Shown piece after piece: positions 3,970-37,479 of a stretch of 40,820 nucleotides of DNA. This DNA is from Thermoleophilia bacterium (GTDB taxonomy: Bacteria > Actinomycetota > Thermoleophilia > Miltoncostaeales > Miltoncostaeaceae), in the NCBI GenBank assembly GCA_025455865.1, contig JALOLS010000007.1:1-40820 (forward strand), written 5' to 3'. The stretch's first letter is position 1. Each line of letters begins with the position of its first letter. Made by a program: the position numbers and the translations under genes. Below the pieces are notes generated by a model. The model searched no databases. It was not told the origin of the DNA and saw nothing but the letters and a program-made list of their open reading frames with translations.

Positions 3970-4689
3970 TCAGGTCCGGCGCCCCCAGATGACCAGGCCG
4001 CCCCCGAGGGAGAGCCGCCGGGCGCGCAGGTCGGCGAGGCCGGCGTCGGCGTACAGGCCGATCAGCCTCCCCGGGGGCCAGCGGTGGTGGAACGCCGGGA
4101 TGCTCCGGTGCAGGAAGCGCCCGGTGCGCGCCCAGGCCGGGCCGCCGGCGAGGAGGCCGAGCGCGGGCAGGCCGGCCGCGGTGTAGGCGCGCCAGGCGAG
4201 CCGGGCCGGCGGCCACGGGGGGACCCCGAACTCGAGGCTGGCGAGGGTGCCGCCCGGCCGCAGGACCCGCACCAGCTCGGCCATGGTGGCCTCGGGATCC
4301 TCGACGTAGCGCAGCAGGTAGCTCACCGTCACGCCGTCGAAGGCCGCGTCGGGGAACGGCAGGCGCTCCGCCTCCCCCTGCACCAGCACGATGCGCCCCT
4401 CCATGCCCTCCGCCCGGACCCGCGCGCGGCCGGCGGCCAGCATCTCCGGGCTCTGGTCCAGGCCCGTCACCCGGCAGGCCCGGCGGCGCACCAGCATCCG
4501 CGCGATGGCGGCCGTGCCGGTCGCGACGTCGAGCACGTGGTCGCCCGCCCCCACCGGGAGGCGGTCGGCGGTGAAGCGCTTCCAGCGGGGCTCCTGGCCC
4601 AGGGACAGGAACGTCGCCCGCGCCTCGTACCCGCGGGCCAGGCCGGCGAAGAGGCGCCGCGCCTGCCGCTTGTGCCCCGGGAGGGTCAG
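3970..4689 (-). CDS. UbiE/MenG-like SAM-dependent methyltransferase
   Basis: A class I methyltransferase of about 239 aa. The SAM-binding motif I is [11 protein letters not shown] (about residue 53), followed by an acidic residue after strand 2 ([11 protein letters not shown]), the post-motif [19 protein letters not shown] and [14 protein letters not shown]. The N-terminal [19 protein letters not shown] matches the part that precedes motif I in UbiE/MenG enzymes, which methylate demethylmenaquinone; an actinobacterium would use this for menaquinone, but substrate is inferred. No ATG, GTG or TTG lies ahead of that conserved N-terminus. The only plausible start is CTG at 4689, which overlaps the TGA of the thioredoxin gene as CTGA. 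Starting at the first internal GTG would remove the conserved helix. Translation is therefore probably coupled to the upstream gene. Confidence 0.85.
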
Positions 4690-5423
4690 TAGAGGGCGCG
4701 CGCGAGCTGCTTGCGGAAGCGCAGCGTGAGGGGATGCTGGTCGCCCAGCCGGCGGAAGATGCCGATCATGGCCGCGCGGAGCTGGTCCTTGAGCGTGCGG
4801 TCCGCCCGGCCGATCGCGTCGAGCAGGTGGGTCAGCGCGGCCTCCTCGTCGCCCCGGGCGAGGGCGGCGAGGCCGGCCTGCACGTCGGGGTCGTCGGACG
4901 CCGCGAGGCGCACCCGGGCCAGCAGCCCGGCCGCGTCGGGGTCGTGGGCGACCGGCTCGAGCACCTCGAGCGCCTCGTCGGACCGCCCGTCGTCGACGAG
5001 CAGCCGCCCGAGCGCGACCCGCGCGCCGGTGTGGCCGGGCTCGCGGCGGACCGCCTCCCGCAGGGACTCCTCGTCGCCCTCGGCCACCAGCTTGTCGGCC
5101 TGGGAGGGGACGATGCGGTTGAGGAACGCCTCGAGCATCGGCGGGGGCACCATCCCCACGAACTCGTCGACCACCGCGCCGTGCCGGAACGCCTTGACCG
5201 CCGGGATGCTCATCACCCGGTAGGCCTGGGCCAGCCGGGGGTTCGCGTCGATGTCGACCTTGGCCAGCACGACGTCGGGCTCCCGGGCGGCGACGGCCGA
5301 CTCGATGAGCGGCCCGAGCTGCCGGCAGGGCCCGCACCACTCGGCCCAGAAGTCGACCACCACGGGCACCTCGCGCGAGCGCTCCAGCACCTCGGCCTCG
5401 AATGTCGCCTCGGTCACGTCCAT
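4686..5423 (-). CDS. ybbN: YbbN/CnoX-type thioredoxin with TPR-like C-terminus
   Basis: A 245-aa protein with an N-terminal thioredoxin domain (about residues 1-105) carrying the redox motif WCGPC (Cys30 and Cys33) and the cis-proline segment SIPAVKAF. The C-terminal half (about 110-245) is helical with TPR-like stretches such as [22 protein letters not shown] and the end block [18 protein letters not shown]. This architecture is that of YbbN (CnoX), a co-chaperone that forms mixed disulfides with unfolded proteins and hands them to DnaK or GroEL; unlike E. coli YbbN the CxxC pair is complete here, so oxidoreductase activity is possible. ATG at 5423 follows a strong AAGGAG; it is preferred over in-frame codons further up. 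It is the first gene of a minus-strand operon and its stop overlaps the start of the methyltransferase. Confidence 0.9.
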
Positions 5424-9373: not shown

Positions 9374-12064
<2,691 letters not shown>

Positions 12065-12071
12065 CCACCCG

Positions 12072-12104
12072 CCCCCGGCCGGCCCGCCCGCGGCCGGCCG
12101 GGGG
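12072..12104 (+). terminator. Hairpin terminator after acnA
   Basis: A perfect 13-bp stem (12072-12084 with 12092-12104, arm CCCCCGGCCGGCC) and a 7-nt loop start 8 nt after the acnA stop. There is no T-run after it, which is normal for very high-GC actinobacteria. The 3' arm directly abuts the TACCCT -10 of the next gene. Confidence 0.6.
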
Positions 12105-12110
12105 TACCCT
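12105..12110 (+). promoter_or_regulatory. -10 element of leaderless promoter (MNT-HEPN gene)
   Basis: TACCCT ends 6 nt before the GTG at 12117 and begins at the last base of the acnA terminator stem, so the -35 region lies inside the hairpin sequence. Confidence 0.5.
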
Positions 12111-31971: not shown

Positions 31972-32226
31972 CTAGGAGGCGACGGCCGGCTCGATGGCCG
32001 GCTGGACGACCCGGCTGACCGTGACCGGGAGGAGCCGCACGAAGGCGTTCAGCTCGGCCGGCGGCGCGCCCGTCTTGAGCCCGTTGAGCAGCCGCTGGAG
32101 CACGGCGACCTCGCGGGGGCCGAGGTCGGCGGACACCGACTGGAGGGCTTCGGTGAGCCGCTCGGCGATGACCGGGTCGATCTCGCCCAGCTGGTCGGTG
32201 ATCTCGGCGGGGATGGCATCTGACAT
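31972..32226 (-). CDS. Small hypothetical protein, 84 aa
   Basis: ATG at 32226 begins an 84-residue, mostly helical, acidic-to-neutral protein without Cys, Trp, signal peptide or membrane segment. Patterns are AEITDQLGEIDPVIAERLTEALQSV and LGPREVAVLQRLLNGLKTGAPPAELNAFVRLLP, suggesting a compact helical bundle, perhaps a protein-binding module. I do not recognise it. A TAGAAT -10 ends 7 nt before the ATG, so a leaderless transcript and this start are well supported. It may be co-transcribed with the YcaQ-like gene 33 nt downstream. The divergent VWA gene starts 75 nt away. Confidence 0.65.
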   Translation of the reverse strand: MSDAIPAEITDQLGEIDPVIAERLTEALQSVSADLGPREVAVLQRLLNGLKTGAPPAELNAFVRLLPVTVSRVVQPAIEPAVAS

Positions 32227-32288: not shown

Positions 32289-32294
32289 TATGCT
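32289..32294 (+). promoter_or_regulatory. -10 element of leaderless promoter (VWA operon)
   Basis: TATGCT ends 6 nt before the GTG at 32301, with no ribosome binding site between them. Confidence 0.55.
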
Positions 32295-32300
32295 GCGCCT

Positions 32301-33995
32301 GTGAAGGCCTCTCGGGTCATCGCGATCCTGGTCGCCGTGGCCCTGGTCGCGGGTGGGCTCATCTGGCGCTTCGCCGGCTCCGGCGACAGCGGCGGTGGTG
32401 GCGGTGGTGGCACGGTCACCGAGGCGCCCGAGGGCGCCGTCGAGGTCCCCTTCGTCTACTCGCCCGAGAAGCGCCCGCTGCTCGAGCCGCTCCTGGCCGA
32501 GTACAACGCGGCCGGGCGCGAGGTGGGCGGGCGGCCGGTGTTCGTGCGCGGCGAGGTCGTCTCCTCGGGGGACTCCGCGGACAAGATCGACCGCGGCGTG
32601 CTCCGCCCGGTGCTCTGGAGCCCGGCGTCGTCGTTGTGGGGGCGCCTGCTGAACTACCGCGCCGACCAGCCGCTGGTGGCCGACGAGAACCCCTCGCTCG
32701 TGCGGACCCCGCTGGTCATCGCCATGTGGGAGCCGCTCGCCCGGGCGCTCGGGTGGCCGGCCAAGCCGCTGGGATGGAAGGACATCCTGCGCGAGGCCCG
32801 CAGCGAGGAGGGCTGGGCGGCCTACGGGCATCCGGAGTGGGGCCGGTTCAAGTTCGGCCACACCAACCCGGACTTCTCGACCTCGGGGCTCTCGGCCGTG
32901 GCGGCCGAGTACCTGTCGGCCGCGGGCAAGACCGAGGGCCTCACGCTGGCCGACGTGCGCGACCCCGCCGTGCGCACGGAGGTCCGCGACATCCAGCGCT
33001 CGGTCGTCCACTACGGCGACACCACCCTGTTCTTCGCCGAGCGGATGAAGGAGCAGGGCCCCTCCTACGTGAGCGCGGTGGCCATGGAGGAGGTCACCGT
33101 CCTGGACTTCAACCGCGCCCCGGACCGGCGGGTCCCGCGGCTGGCGGCGATCTACCCCAAGGAGGGCACGTTCTTCAGCGACAACCCGCTGATCGTGCTG
33201 AACGGGGACTGGGTCACGCCGGAGCAGAAGGCGGCGGCCCAGGACCTGATCGCGTTCCTGCAGGAGAAGGTGACGCCCCAGAGGGCGGCCGAGCTCTCGT
33301 TCCGGCCCTCCGACCCCGACGCCCGCCCGCTGCCCCCGGTGACCACCGCCAACCTGGTCGACCCGGCCAAGCCGACCCGGCTGCTCAGCCTGCCCGAGCC
33401 CCGCGTGCTGAACGCGATCACCGGGGCGTGGCGGCAGGACCGCAAGCCCGCCTACGTGCAGGTGGTGCTGGACATCTCGGGCTCGATGAACGACGAGGGC
33501 AAGCTCGAGGGGGCCAAGCAGGGCCTGGAGAGGTTCCTGGACCTCATGCAGCCCCAGGACCTGGTGGGCCTCACGGTGTTCAGCGACCGGGTGACCGTGC
33601 TCGCGCCCCCGCGGCCCATCCGGACCGACCGCGCCGTGCTCAAGGGGCGCATCCGCAACCTCATCGCCGACGGCGGCACGGCGGTCTACGACGCCACGCT
33701 GGCCGCCCAGCAGGGGGTCGCCCGCGGCGCCCGCCCCGACCGCATCAGCGCGGTGGTGGTGCTGACCGACGGCGCCGACAACCAGAGCCGCGCGGGGATC
33801 GACCAGGTGCTGCGCGAGCTCAGGCGGCGCTCGGGCAGCGAGGGCGACGGCGTGCGCGTGTTCACCATCGCCTACGGCTCCGACGCGGAGCGGGAGAAGC
33901 TCCAGGAGATCGCCCGCGCCGGCGGCGGCGCCGCCTACAGCGGCGACCCGGCCACGATCGAGCGGGTCTACACGCAGATCGCGTCGTTCTTCTGA
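32301..33995 (+). CDS. Membrane-anchored substrate-binding and VWA domain protein
   Basis: A 564-aa protein. Residues 5-24 (RVIAILVAVALVAGGLIWRF) form an uncleaved anchor or signal; there is no lipobox Cys. A Gly-rich linker follows, then a periplasmic-binding-protein-like region (about 45-370) and a C-terminal von Willebrand A domain. The metal-ion-dependent adhesion site is complete: D391-x-S393-x-S395 in LDISGSMND, Thr460 in DGGTAVYD and Asp490 in LTDGADNQ. The domain pair is known from actinobacteria (solute-binding plus VWA proteins) but has no defined job; no ABC permease is nearby, so it is unlikely to be a simple transporter component. VWA domains usually mediate metal-dependent protein contact. 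GTG start is supported by the -10 element. The two following genes are joined to it by CTGA overlaps. Confidence 0.88.
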   Translation: MKASRVIAILVAVALVAGGLIWRFAGSGDSGGGGGGGTVTEAPEGAVEVPFVYSPEKRPLLEPLLAEYNAAGREVGGRPVFVRGEVVSSGDSADKIDRGVLRPVLWSPASSLWGRLLNYRADQPLVADENPSLVRTPLVIAMWEPLARALGWPAKPLGWKDILREARSEEGWAAYGHPEWGRFKFGHTNPDFSTSGLSAVAAEYLSAAGKTEGLTLADVRDPAVRTEVRDIQRSVVHYGDTTLFFAERMKEQGPSYVSAVAMEEVTVLDFNRAPDRRVPRLAAIYPKEGTFFSDNPLIVLNGDWVTPEQKAAAQDLIAFLQEKVTPQRAAELSFRPSDPDARPLPPVTTANLVDPAKPTRLLSLPEPRVLNAITGAWRQDRKPAYVQVVLDISGSMNDEGKLEGAKQGLERFLDLMQPQDLVGLTVFSDRVTVLAPPRPIRTDRAVLKGRIRNLIADGGTAVYDATLAAQQGVARGARPDRISAVVVLTDGADNQSRAGIDQVLRELRRRSGSEGDGVRVFTIAYGSDAEREKLQEIARAGGGAAYSGDPATIERVYTQIASFF

Positions 33996-34771
33996 GCCGC
34001 GACGACCTCATCCGCGACCTCGCGCTGCGCGCGCTCTTCCGCCCGGCCAACCTGCTCCCGCCGGCCGCGGTCCTCGCGGTGGGCCTCGCCACCGGCCTCT
34101 GGCCCCTCTACATCGCCGCCGCGGTGCTCTACGGGGTGCTCGCCGGGACCACGTTCTTCAACGTGGACGAGGGCCGCAAGGTGATCGCCGCGCGCCGCGG
34201 CACCGGCGAGGCCGAGGCGCCCGCCCCCGCCCCGGTGCTCCTGACCGACCCGCTCGTGCGGGCCCGCTACGCCGAGGCCCGCGACGAGGAGGCGCGCATC
34301 CGCGCCGCGCTCCAGAAGAGCCCCATCCCGCTCCCCGAGGTCGAGGTGGAGATGGCGGGGCTCATGGACGACGTGCGCCACCTGTGCGAGCAGGCCGAGG
34401 TCGTCACCGGCTACCTGCGCACGGTCGACCGGGAGCGGCTCGCGGCCCGGCTCGCCGCGGTCGAGCGCGACCGGGCCGCCGCCGGGCCGGACCTCGAGGC
34501 GACCCTGGCCGAGACGGCCACCGCGCTCGCCCAGCAGATCCAGACCGTGGACGAGATGGAGGATCACACCAGCCGGTTCCACGCGCGGATGACCCAGCTG
34601 GTGAGCACGATGGGGGCCATCCGCGCCCAGGTCGTGCGCCTGCAGGTGCAGGGCCAGCCGGACGCCTCCGAGCGGGTGCGGGGCCAGCTCGCCGGCGCCC
34701 GTGAGCTGCTGGCCGGCATCAACGCCGGCATGGACGAGGTCGCCGAGCGCGCCCAGGAGACGCCGGGCTGA
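33992..34771 (+). CDS. Two-helix membrane protein with coiled-coil tail
   Basis: About 259 aa. After a short basic N-terminus (RDDLIRDLALRALFRPANLL) come two adjacent membrane helices (PPAAVLAVGLATGLWPLYIAAAVLYGVLAG). The remaining two thirds is a long cytoplasmic, charged helical region with heptad-like patterns, for example VRHLCEQAEVVTGYLRTVDRERLAARL and TLAETATALAQQIQTVDEME, ending in ELLAGINAGMDEVAERAQ. I do not recognise a family. No ATG, GTG or TTG lies in frame before the first membrane helix; the first GTG would start inside it. CTG at 33992 overlaps the TGA of the VWA gene (CTGA) and is the likely start. Position in the operon suggests it is the membrane partner of the VWA protein. 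Confidence 0.72.
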   Translation: MSRDDLIRDLALRALFRPANLLPPAAVLAVGLATGLWPLYIAAAVLYGVLAGTTFFNVDEGRKVIAARRGTGEAEAPAPAPVLLTDPLVRARYAEARDEEARIRAALQKSPIPLPEVEVEMAGLMDDVRHLCEQAEVVTGYLRTVDRERLAARLAAVERDRAAAGPDLEATLAETATALAQQIQTVDEMEDHTSRFHARMTQLVSTMGAIRAQVVRLQVQGQPDASERVRGQLAGARELLAGINAGMDEVAERAQETPG

Positions 34772-35700
34772 GCGCCGGGCGCCTGTTCGACGCGTACCTG
34801 TTCGTCGACTGGAGCGCGAGGAACCGGCCGTCGCCGGCCACGCCGAAGCCCGACACGATCTGGGTGGGCGAGCGGTGCGGCGAGGATGGGGACGAGAAGT
34901 ACTGCCGGACCCGCCATGAGGCCACCGAGCACGTGCGCGCCCGCCTGCGCCACCACGTCACGGGCGGGCGGCGGGTGCTGGTGGGCTTCGACTTCCCCTA
35001 CGGCTACCCGGCGGGGCTGGCCGCCCGGCTCGGCCTGAGCGGGGCCCCGTGGCGCGCGGTGTGGGACACCCTGGCCGACGTGGTGCAGGACACCCCCGAG
35101 AACGTGAGCAACCGCTTCGCCGCCGCGGGCGGGCTCAACCGGCGCATCGGGCCCGGTCCCGGGCCGTTCTGGGGTTGCCCGGCGAGCCGGCGACACGACG
35201 GGCTGACCTCGACGGCGAAGGGGCTCATCGCGTTCCCGTTCTGCGACCTGGCGAAGCTGCGGCGCACCGAGGCGGCGATCGCCGGCGTGCAGGAGACCTG
35301 GAAGCTCTCGGGCGCGGGCAGCGTGGGGAGCCAGGCGCTGACCGGGATCCCCCGGGTGCGCGCCCTGCGCGACGACCCGCAGCTCGCCGCCGTGAGCCGC
35401 GTCTGGCCGTTCGAGACCGGCTTCACCGCCCGGCCGGTGCCGGACCGCGGCCCGTTCGTGCTGCACGCCGAGATCTGGCCGGGCATCGTGCCCGCGGCGG
35501 AGGTCGGGCACGAGACCGCGACGACCGGGGCGATCAAGGACCAGGCCCAGGTGCGTCTGATGTGCCGCTGGGCCGCCCGGCACGATGCGGATGGCGCCCT
35601 CGGGGCCTTCCTCGCCGACCCGGGCCTCGCCCCGCCGGACCGGGCCAGGGTGGACCAGGAGGAGGGCTGGATCCTCGGGGTGGCGCTCCCGGCCCCCTGA
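34768..35700 (+). CDS. RNase-H-fold-like protein (homologues labelled molybdopterin guanine dinucleotide synthesis)
   Basis: About 310 aa. The N-terminus YLFVDWSARNRPSPATPKPD is an Asp-bearing first strand, followed by YCRTRHEATEHV, RRVLVGFDFPYGYPAGL, TPENVSNRFAAAGGLNRRI, GPFWGCPASR, ETWKLSGAGSVGSQALTGIP, VWPFETGF, VLHAEIWPG and AIKDQAQVRLM. I recognise these from proteobacterial proteins that carry an automatic label 'molybdopterin guanine dinucleotide synthesis'; the label has little behind it, and the Asp/Glu pattern (VDWS, GFDFP, HAEIWP, KDQAQ) fits a DUF429/RNase-H-like nuclease fold. Known starts fail: the first GTG (34864) removes the first strand. CTG at 34768 overlaps the preceding TGA, and an in-frame stop at 34702 bounds the choice. 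Third gene of the VWA operon. Confidence 0.78.
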   Translation: MSAGRLFDAYLFVDWSARNRPSPATPKPDTIWVGERCGEDGDEKYCRTRHEATEHVRARLRHHVTGGRRVLVGFDFPYGYPAGLAARLGLSGAPWRAVWDTLADVVQDTPENVSNRFAAAGGLNRRIGPGPGPFWGCPASRRHDGLTSTAKGLIAFPFCDLAKLRRTEAAIAGVQETWKLSGAGSVGSQALTGIPRVRALRDDPQLAAVSRVWPFETGFTARPVPDRGPFVLHAEIWPGIVPAAEVGHETATTGAIKDQAQVRLMCRWAARHDADGALGAFLADPGLAPPDRARVDQEEGWILGVALPAP

Positions 35701-35715: not shown

Positions 35716-37479
35716 CTACGGGCGGACGGGGCCGGCGCCGCCGCGCATGGGGCGGAGCACCAGGCGCTCGATGCGGTCCAGCACGGGCTGCTCCTCGGCC
35801 GACGGGAGCGCCCAGTTGATCTGCCGGGCGGTCGCCAGGCCGGCCTCGAGCACGGCCACGGCGTCCTCGACGTCCACCGGGTGGGGCGGGATGCCGGTCT
35901 CCTCCATGCGGGAGAAGACCTCCCGCCGCAGGCGCGCCTCGATCATGTCCGGCAGGAAGAAGGCGTCCTTGACCGCGCCCCCGAGCTCGTCGAAGTCGAC
36001 CAGCGCGACGAGCGGGCCGATGCGCCCGTCCTCCTTGCCCACCGCGATCACGATCTGCTGCTGGTCGGGGGCGTCGTCGGGGGAGGTGGCCCAGGCCGCC
36101 ACCGGGCGCGCCGACATGAGGCCGCTCACCCCGGGGCGCACCGCGCGGGCCCCGCCCGCGGCGCGCCACGCCGCCTGCCCGACCTCGCCGGGGAGCACCA
36201 CCGCGAGGGCCAGGCACGCCTCGCGCCCGTCGGCCCCGCCGTCGGTCCCGAGCACCTCGATGAGCCCCTCGAGCTCGTCGGCGCCCATGGCCGCGAGCAT
36301 GCCCTCGGCGGCCGCCTCGATGAGATAGGAACGCCGCAGGCCCAGCAGCGCCCGCGCGATGCGCTGGGGCGCGGCGTCGACCGCGGCGTCCCGGCCGCCG
36401 CCCGGACCGCGCTCGGCCAGCCGGCGGAACGCGGCCTGGGCGTCGAGGTCGTCGGCGAGGTCGGCCAGGCAGGCGGCGACCTCCTGGTCGCCCGGCCCCT
36501 CGCTGCGGGCCAGGCCCTCCTGCACCAGGCGCCGGCCGGTGACCAGGTCGCCGCCGCCGAGGGCGACGACCGCGCCCTGGTAGAGGTTCTCCGGATCCGG
36601 GTCATCGCCCACGATCAGGTCGCGCAGCGCCGCGAGGGCCTCGTCGTGGCGGCCGTCGCGGGCCAGGAGCTGGGCCAGGCGCCGGCGGGCGGGCGGCAGC
36701 CGCTCGGGCAGGTGGCGCTCCAGCAGGGCGACCAGCCGGGCCTGCTGGGCCGCCGCGGGGCCGAAGCGCTCGTCGTGGGCCAGGTCCTCGACCTCGATCT
36801 CCATGATCTCGGCCTCGACCTCGGTGAGGCTCTGCCACGCGGTGCCCTCCCGGCCCACCCAGCCCAGATGGGTCTCCAGGCCGGCGTCGGCGAGCACGGT
36901 GGTGATGGGGCGCCCGGGCGTGCGGAACGCCTCCGGGGACCCGGCCGTGATGCCGAGCACGAGCGGGCCCAGCGCGACGACCGGCGGCACCAGGAGGGGG
37001 TCGACGCCCGGCCCGCGGTCGAGCCGGCGCATGATGGCGCCGACCAGGGCGGCCTCGTCGGCGGTGCGCGCGTCCACCGCGTCGACCGCCTGGACCACCA
37101 GCCGGCGGGCGACGGGGTCCTCGATCCGGACCACGACCACCTGCCCGGGGCGCGTGCCCCGGGGGAGCGGGACGCTCGGGCCCACGCCGATCATCGCGAG
37201 GGGCGCGAGATCCGGGTCGACCTCGACGGCCCGCGCATCGACGTCGCGGGGCGCCACGACCGCCGACAGCACCACGCCCTGGAGCGCCTGGGCCTTGCTG
37301 ACCAGCCGCCCGTCCTCGAGCTCCACCACCCGCGTGTCGTCGCGCAGCGCGCGGCGGACCGCCCCGGCGGGGTCGCGGGAGCGCGTGACGCCCTCACTGG
37401 CGAGCGCGTCCCCGAGCTCACGGGCGGACCGGGGACCGCCGGCCAGCAGGGCGAGGGCGGCGTCGGCGATGCGTCCCAT
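35716..37479 (-). CDS. Hypothetical protein with winged-helix-like and TPR-like regions, 587 aa
   Basis: ATG at 37479. The first 70 residues (IADAALALLAGGPRSARELGDALASEGV, then RALRDDTRVVELEDGRLVSKAQAL) look like a winged helix. A beta-rich middle (about 70-240) contains GRPITTVLADAGLETHLGWVGREG. From about 245 to 400 the chain is helical and TPR-like (ARRRLAQLLARDGRHDEALAALRDLI; LVTGRRLVQEGLARSEG). The C-terminal part has a hydrophobic core stretch QQQIVIAVGKEDGRIGPLVALVDFDELGGAVKDAFFL, which resembles the IVRIVRxDGxxH-like alpha/beta of metal-independent domains seen in some SEC-C or TPR regulatory proteins, but I cannot name it. No signal peptide; cytoplasmic. Convergent with the VWA operon, 15 nt between stops. 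A TAGCCT hexamer ends 10 nt before the ATG. Confidence 0.78.
   Translation of the reverse strand: MGRIADAALALLAGGPRSARELGDALASEGVTRSRDPAGAVRRALRDDTRVVELEDGRLVSKAQALQGVVLSAVVAPRDVDARAVEVDPDLAPLAMIGVGPSVPLPRGTRPGQVVVVRIEDPVARRLVVQAVDAVDARTADEAALVGAIMRRLDRGPGVDPLLVPPVVALGPLVLGITAGSPEAFRTPGRPITTVLADAGLETHLGWVGREGTAWQSLTEVEAEIMEIEVEDLAHDERFGPAAAQQARLVALLERHLPERLPPARRRLAQLLARDGRHDEALAALRDLIVGDDPDPENLYQGAVVALGGGDLVTGRRLVQEGLARSEGPGDQEVAACLADLADDLDAQAAFRRLAERGPGGGRDAAVDAAPQRIARALLGLRRSYLIEAAAEGMLAAMGADELEGLIEVLGTDGGADGREACLALAVVLPGEVGQAAWRAAGGARAVRPGVSGLMSARPVAAWATSPDDAPDQQQIVIAVGKEDGRIGPLVALVDFDELGGAVKDAFFLPDMIEARLRREVFSRMEETGIPPHPVDVEDAVAVLEAGLATARQINWALPSAEEQPVLDRIERLVLRPMRGGAGPVRP

What the first reader, a model, noticed from the sequence alone, without database searches (positions are those of the whole stretch)
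32301..35700. VWA/solute-binding anchor, coiled-coil membrane protein and RNase-H-like protein in one CTGA-linked operon
Seen: a leaderless promoter, a membrane-anchored protein with a complete MIDAS site, a two-helix protein with a long helical tail, and an RNase-H-fold candidate, all joined by CTGA overlaps. No ABC permease or ATPase accompanies the binding-protein-like domain. Inference: an envelope complex with an extracytoplasmic metal-dependent adhesion module, an inner-membrane relay and perhaps a cytoplasmic nucleic-acid-acting effector. This layout would suit a surveillance or defence role, but that is speculation; I know of no described system with these three parts.
Basis: inference. 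Interest (0 to 1): 0.55.

Follow-up and report, generated by a model that had tools for sequence, protein, structure and literature searches.

The report
Envelope-stress gene pair, PspA partner
Two of the three genes form a conserved bacterial pair, an outside-facing binding protein and an inner-membrane partner, that in many relatives sits beside the membrane-repair protein PspA; the third gene is an unrelated insertion.

Summary
The three genes are real, but they are not one system. p1 (32301-33995) is a membrane-anchored solute-binding + VWA protein with a complete MIDAS site. p2 (33992-34771) is a two-helix membrane protein with a helical bundle. They form a conserved pair in Actinomycetota and Myxococcota. 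p3 (34768-35700) is an insertion: relatives G015 and G006 keep the same flanking genes without it, and p3 was never found near p1/p2 elsewhere. In a 396-genome phylum sample, p1 occurs in 21 genomes besides the window's; in 14 of these PspA/IM30 (the bacterial ESCRT-III protein) lies downstream of p1 and p2 on the same strand, and in 12 of the 14 it is the genome's only PspA. G048, the nearest relative outside the window's family, has this arrangement. The window's family has p1-p2 without an adjacent PspA; its genome has two PspA genes elsewhere, not of the operon type. Best reading: p1-p2 is the outside-to-inside arm of a PspA-type envelope-stress module. Defence has no support. I found no description of the SBP-VWA/p2/PspA linkage in the papers searched, including the main text of the 2024 PSP partner survey. 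RNase H folding of p3 is unproven. p2 and p3 both seem to start at CTG.

The parts
32289..32294 (+). TATGCT, possible -10 element of a leaderless promoter for p1
   Evidence: sequence; similar TANNNT hexamers before the start in G015 and G006; by eye only
32301..33995 (+). p1: membrane-anchored solute-binding + VWA protein, 564 aa
   Evidence: Pfam; relatives; alignment
32763..33347 (+). solute-binding-protein-like region of p1 (residues 155-349)
   Evidence: SBP_bac_8 E 1.9e-5, below cutoff; SBP-only paralogue in L032 matches SBP_bac_11 E 8.3e-20
33462..33926 (+). VWA domain of p1 (residues 388-542) with MIDAS residues D391, S393, S395, T460, D490
   Evidence: PF00092 E 1.9e-17; five residues invariant in 16 rows
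33992..34771 (+). p2: membrane hairpin plus helical bundle, 259 aa, CTG start overlapping the p1 stop (CTGA)
   Evidence: family
34768..35700 (+). p3: insertion, stand-alone copy of the unknown domain of PRK14495; not part of the p1-p2 module
34755..34759 (+). AGGAG, possible Shine-Dalgarno site 8 nt before the CTG of p3
   Evidence: sequence; by eye
31972..32226 (-). divergent flanking gene, 84 aa, conserved next to p1 in G015 and G006 (synteny marker)
   Evidence: cluster 19
35716..37479 (-). convergent flanking gene, 587 aa, directly after p2 in G015 and G006 (synteny marker showing p3 is inserted)
   Evidence: cluster 20; only weak TPR matches

Best explanation
p1 and p2 are the trans-envelope arm of an envelope-stress / membrane-maintenance module of the PspA (bacterial ESCRT-III) kind. 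Shown: p1 has one N-terminal anchor, a solute-binding-like region and an intact MIDAS VWA domain; p2 has a membrane hairpin and a helical bundle; the two genes are a conserved pair, and in many genomes the next conserved gene is the genome's only pspA. Inferred: p1 faces outward and, by its binding and metal-dependent domains, detects a ligand or a change in wall or membrane; it passes this to p2, whose bundle lies in the cytoplasm and recruits or regulates a PspA polymer on the inner leaflet. In the window's own family pspA is not in the operon, so p1-p2 must use a PspA encoded elsewhere, or act without it. p3 is not part of the mechanism.
For: Phylum sample: in 14 of 21 other p1 genomes, from 8 families, p1, p2 and PspA lie on one strand within 4.2 kb; in 12 of the 14 this is the only PF04012 gene of the genome. 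Chance per genome of a PspA in such a place is about 0.0003-0.0012. G048, sister to the window's family in the p1 tree (100/99), is one of the 14. PspA is confirmed by Pfam in L048 (E 1.1e-41) and L029 (E 2.4e-20). Ten of 33 named loci have PspA too. Other neighbours are envelope genes: MurJ in five loci, a PspM-family gene in five. MIDAS intact.
Against: No pspA lies next to p1-p2 in the window or in the four same-family relatives with p1; the two pspA copies of the window's genome were not found by the operon-type PspA HMM at E<=1e-10, and same-family genomes without p1 also carry pspA. In 3 of the 14 genomes (G189, G287, G297) other genes separate p1 from p2, in G287 and G297 partly on the other strand. 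Six genomes have only divergent p1 homologues with neither p2 nor PspA nearby. PspA adjacency needs 8 changes on the p1 tree. Five Myxococcota loci have a second binding protein instead of PspA. No physical interaction is shown. The genomes are related, so counts are not independent.
Confidence: 0.55

Rival explanations
1. p1-p2 belongs to a broader class of vWA membrane-remodelling systems like the vWA/FtsZl1 operons, with PspA, TelA or others as interchangeable cytosolic partners.
For: Makarova and Koonin 2010 (PMC2875224, passages) describe MIDAS-intact, partly secreted vWA proteins in operons with a tubulin-like protein. In Rarobacter (L059) p1 is followed by a 327-aa gene and TelA.
Against: No tubulin-like family among the neighbours scanned; whole genomes were not searched for it. 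p2 is specific to the p1 loci seen here.
Confidence: 0.15
2. p1-p2 is an orphan solute-binding receptor: a nutrient or anion uptake or sensing system that lends its binding protein to a transporter encoded elsewhere, and PspA adjacency is a by-product.
For: Solute-binding-like region; SBP-only paralogues upstream or downstream in many loci.
Against: No permease or ABC ATPase in the flanking genes scanned or among the conserved neighbours; the fused MIDAS VWA domain is unusual for uptake (recalled); repeated PspA linkage.
Confidence: 0.15
3. The three genes form a surveillance or defence system with p3 as nucleic-acid-acting effector.
For: CTGA overlaps join all three; nominal p1-p3 co-occurrence in the sample (4 genomes against 0.9 expected, hypergeometric P 0.008), but this includes the window itself and three genomes of one genus.
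Against: p3 absent from all five nearest p1 genomes; synteny without p3 in G015 and G006; p3 elsewhere in unrelated places; no PADLOC match; RNase H fold not supported.
Confidence: 0.03

Closest known systems
Phage shock protein (PSP) systems, PspA/IM30 (bacterial ESCRT-III), including mycobacterial ClgR-PspA-PspM-PspN
   Same: In relatives p1-p2 sit with the genome's PspA, often the only one; five Dactylosporangium loci add a PspM-family (PF25587) gene; p2 has the same hairpin-plus-cytosolic-helices plan as described for two-TM PspM
   Different: No PspB/C, Toastrack or ClgR seen at these loci; outside-facing SBP-VWA protein not mentioned in the main text of the 2024 survey (0 occurrences of vWA and Willebrand); p2 shows no profile similarity to PspM; no PspA next to p1-p2 in the window
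vWA/FtsZl1 membrane-remodelling operons (Makarova and Koonin 2010, PMC2875224, passages read)
   Same: MIDAS-intact vWA protein with a membrane or secretion signal, linked to a polymer-forming cytosolic protein and membrane proteins
   Different: No FtsZ-like gene among neighbours scanned; polymer protein is PspA
XpaC-TelA pair
   Same: Small membrane protein with long helices plus helical cytosolic partner (recalled); TelA two genes after p1 in Rarobacter
   Different: p2 and six relatives give no XpaC match; PspA rather than TelA in most loci
ABC-transporter solute-binding proteins
   Same: p1 region 155-349 resembles SBP_bac_8
   Different: fused to VWA; no permease or ATPase nearby
PRK14495 MobB/unknown-domain fusion (NCBIfam NF011066), for p3
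   Same: p3 matches the C-terminal unknown domain, E 8.9e-52
   Different: the MobB part is absent

Membership tests
PSP (PspA-centred) system | PspA/IM30 gene in the same operon | tested here: not met
   No PspA next to p1-p2 in the window or its four same-family relatives; met in 14 of 21 other p1 genomes of the phylum sample
PSP (PspA-centred) system | PspA present in the genome | tested here: met
   Two PF04012 genes on other contigs of G000, not found by the operon-type HMM at E<=1e-10
PSP (PspA-centred) system | physical or functional link to PspA | not testable with these tools
   needs interaction or deletion experiments
PspM (Rv2743c, PF25587), for p2 | sequence or profile similarity | tested here: not met
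   Pfam no match; hhalign of both p2 clusters against PspM-type cluster: probability 0.6 and 0.3%
XpaC (for p2) | Pfam XpaC match | tested here: not met
   none for p2 at E<=1 or six relatives at E<=0.1
vWA/FtsZl1 system | tubulin-like FtsZl1 gene in the operon | tested here: not met
   three genes flanking p1-p3 in the window scanned with Pfam, none tubulin-like
vWA/FtsZl1 system | vWA protein with intact MIDAS, membrane-associated | tested here: met
ABC uptake system | permease and ATPase with the binding protein | tested here: not met
   flanking genes scanned; conserved neighbours
Known anti-phage defence systems | PADLOC model match | tested here: not met
   no match at E<=1 for p1, p2, p3
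RNase-H-like DUF429 (for p3) | profile similarity or fold | tested here: inconclusive
   only a 20-column motif match, probability 31%; model unusable
PRK14495 MobB/unknown-domain fusion (for p3) | homology to the C-terminal unknown domain | tested here: met
   E 8.9e-52, profile positions 167-441 of 452; below the full-length cutoff
PRK14495 MobB/unknown-domain fusion (for p3) | MobB domain at the N terminus | tested here: not met
   profile positions before 167 not matched; no Pfam MobB match

The most novel reading that the evidence does not exclude
SBP-VWA plus the two-helix bundle protein define an undescribed class of bacterial ESCRT-III system with its own outside sensor: the binding domain reads a cell-wall or lipid II signal, the MIDAS VWA domain switches, and p2 carries the signal through the membrane to nucleate PspA; in some genomes it is wired to MurJ and an AAA+ ATPase. 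It would be an outside-in trigger for PspA in lineages that own a single PspA gene.
Probability: 0.3. Interest if true: 0.75.

Novelty: new variant of a known kind. Interest (0 to 1): 0.5.

Why it matters
How PspA polymers are told where and when to act is unclear outside Proteobacteria; Ravi et al. write that it is unknown how PspA homologues without an associated AAA ATPase regulate assembly (PMC11237479). A conserved outside-facing binding protein and a membrane bundle protein near the only PspA of many actinobacterial genomes give a concrete, knock-out-testable candidate for the sensing arm.

Tried and rejected
Defence system: PADLOC negative. Three-gene unit: rejected by distribution and synteny. 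p1-p3 co-occurrence is nominally above chance (P 0.008), but it counts the window itself and three genomes of one genus, so it is not used. p2 as PspM, XpaC or PspA by sequence: no match. p2 fold searches gave generic helical bundles (no PDB match at Foldseek E<=0.001; two Chlamydia IncA rows, the better at Z 12.1, given no weight; the ESCRT-III filament CdvB2 only at rank 46, E 0.28). p3 structure without an alignment failed, pLDDT 34. PDB profile search with p3: nothing at E<=10. DUF429 comparison weak.

Literature: eight searches; none listed a paper describing the SBP-VWA/p2/PspA linkage. Supplements and most subscription journals were not readable. Seen: PMC11237479 outline with abstract, passages, section 16 part 1 of 2, sections 22 and 29; PMC2875224, PMC12791056, PMC13271388 and PMC7159879 passages only.

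Rows dropped or qualified: L140 and L143 left out of the p3 alignment (in-frame TGA in the search listing); L040 left out of the p2 alignment used for folding (masked letters); L064 and L152 have no 'strong p1'; L134's 'p2' label there is a protein kinase and is not counted; L060's p2 call is weak (E 5e-4). L034 and L120 have identical p1 and appear to be one locus from two collections, so the 33 named loci and the 396-genome sample overlap and are not added together. AAA, SBP-only and MurJ labels rest on HMMs built here from six, six and three loci, Pfam-checked only in L122 (AAA), L032 (SBP-only), L038 and L121 (MurJ). In one search the SBP-only paralogue and p1 overlap in HMM hits; the labels were separated by p1 score.
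Full report
Anatomy. p1 (32301-33995, 564 aa) has a single N-terminal hydrophobic segment, a solute-binding region that Pfam recognises only weakly in this member (SBP_bac_8, E 1.9e-5, below cutoff) and a strong VWA domain. A separate SBP-only paralogue in the Myxococcota locus L032 matches SBP_bac_11 at E 8.3e-20. All five MIDAS residues are invariant in 16 aligned rows. p2 (33992-34771, 259 aa) has no Pfam family. An alignment of 21 rows gave a good model (mean pLDDT 83.4): a membrane hairpin followed by a helical domain, residues 87-256. Basic residues on both sides of the hairpin suggest that both ends are cytoplasmic (inference from the positive-inside rule). p3 (34768-35700, 310 aa) matches only the C-terminal unknown domain of the PRK14495 MobB-fusion model (E 8.9e-52).

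Start codons. Both downstream genes begin at CTGA overlaps. For p2 the CTG lines up with ATG in G015 and GTG in G006; for p3 no ATG, GTG or TTG exists between the in-frame stop at 34702 and codon 33. CTG initiation at both is therefore the best reading; it needs protein-level proof.

The trio is not a unit. Of 61 genomes searched, five besides the window's have a p1 orthologue at 54-67% identity, and none of the five has p3. In G015 and G006 the locus is collinear with the window: same divergent small gene, p1, p2, same convergent large gene, with 6 bp between p2 and that gene. In the window p3 fills that gap. Elsewhere p3 lies in differing neighbourhoods, and in the three phylum-sample genomes besides the window's that have both p1 and p3 these are on different contigs or about 750 kb apart.

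The pair is a unit. Two clusters of downstream proteins, one from the window's family, G048 and Myxococcota, the other from other Actinomycetota, join in one family by profile comparison (98.7%, E 2.8e-16, 253 columns). A p2 gene follows p1 in 4 of 4 same-family relatives with p1, in G048, and in 23 of 33 named loci, mostly Actinomycetota and Myxococcota with one weak Chloroflexota case; in L044 another gene lies between, and L050, one of the ten without, is cut at the contig end. The window's genome holds one p2-family gene only.

The conserved third gene is PspA. In the phylum sample (396 genomes, 22 with p1 at E<=1e-40 including the window's) 14 of the 21 others, from 8 families, carry p1, p2 and PspA on one strand within 4.2 kb. 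In three of the 14 (G189, G287, G297) other genes separate p1 from p2, in G287 and G297 partly on the other strand, so these three are neighbourhoods, not simple operons. Of the remaining seven, G353 is cut by a contig end, and six (G087, G237, G247, G307, G318, G378) hold only divergent p1 homologues without p2 or PspA nearby. A whole-genome search with PF04012 shows that this PspA is the only one in 12 of the 14; G277 and G421 have a second. By position alone a PspA would fall there with probability of about 0.0003-0.0012 per genome; the genomes are related, so I do not multiply these. Among the 33 named loci ten have PspA. Some loci also hold an SBP-only paralogue upstream, an AAA+ ATPase (AAA_lid_6 in L122), MurJ between p2 and PspA (five loci), or a PspM-family gene after PspA (five Dactylosporangium loci). 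In five Myxococcota loci the order is p1, p2, SBP-only.

Where the window stands. In the p1 tree (63 rows) the window's family is one clade (100/99) whose sister is G048, which has the PspA arrangement; the PspA label needs 8 changes on the tree. PspA adjacency has thus been gained or lost several times; loss in the window's family is one simple reading of the local branch, not proven. The window's genome has two pspA genes on other contigs, each followed by a 92-aa gene resembling the PspAA domain (my reading, not tested). They were not detected by the operon-type PspA HMM at E<=1e-10. Whether they serve p1-p2 is unknown.

Mechanism. Shown: gene order, predicted topology, intact metal site, frequent linkage to a sole PspA in relatives. 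Inferred: p1 senses outside, p2 transmits, a PspA polymer acts inside. MurJ, a wall-hydrolase gene (M23 and cell-wall-binding repeats in L124) and PspM neighbours fit envelope maintenance. Nothing here points to anti-phage defence.

Known work. The 2024 survey of PSP partners (PMC11237479; outline, passages, section 16 part 1, sections 22 and 29 read) lists AAA+, band-7, CesT/Tir, TPM, thioredoxin and PspM associations and a PBPB-OmpA protein with ABC genes, but has no VWA or Willebrand in its main text; it calls PspM restricted to mycobacteria and corynebacteria. The vWA/FtsZl1 operons (PMC2875224, passages) are the nearest conceptual precedent. Eight paper searches found no description of this linkage; supplements were not readable, so it may be listed there.

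Noticed in passing
window 33992-33994 and 34768-34770: Two consecutive genes seem to use CTG as start codon at CTGA stop/start overlaps; gene callers that allow only ATG/GTG/TTG would truncate both.
   Followed up: partly
L153 (G000:C57) 4072-5153 and L154 (G000:C10) 523-1628: The window's genome has two pspA genes, each followed by a 92-aa gene that resembles the PspAA domain (by eye); they are not found by the operon-type PspA HMM.
   Followed up: partly
L045, L048, L049, L051, L052 (Dactylosporangium): A PspM/Rv2743c-family gene (PF25587, E 1.9e-16 in L048) follows PspA, outside the mycobacteria and corynebacteria to which the 2024 survey restricts PspM.
   Followed up: partly
L038, L117, L118, L121, L122: The lipid II flippase gene murJ lies between p2 and pspA, tying the module to peptidoglycan export.
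   Followed up: no
L117, L118, L121-L125, L127, L129 and others: Upstream of p1 lie an AAA+ ATPase (AAA_lid_6 in L122) and an SBP-only paralogue of p1; the AAA+ could be an energy source for PspA turnover.
   Followed up: no
L059 (Rarobacter faecitabidus) 9755-12109: Here a p1 homologue is followed by a 327-aa protein and TelA instead of p2 and PspA.
   Followed up: no
L144, L148, L149 (family f52): p3 follows three genes that read by eye as rimO, pgsA and cinA; the order recurs in this family.
   Followed up: partly
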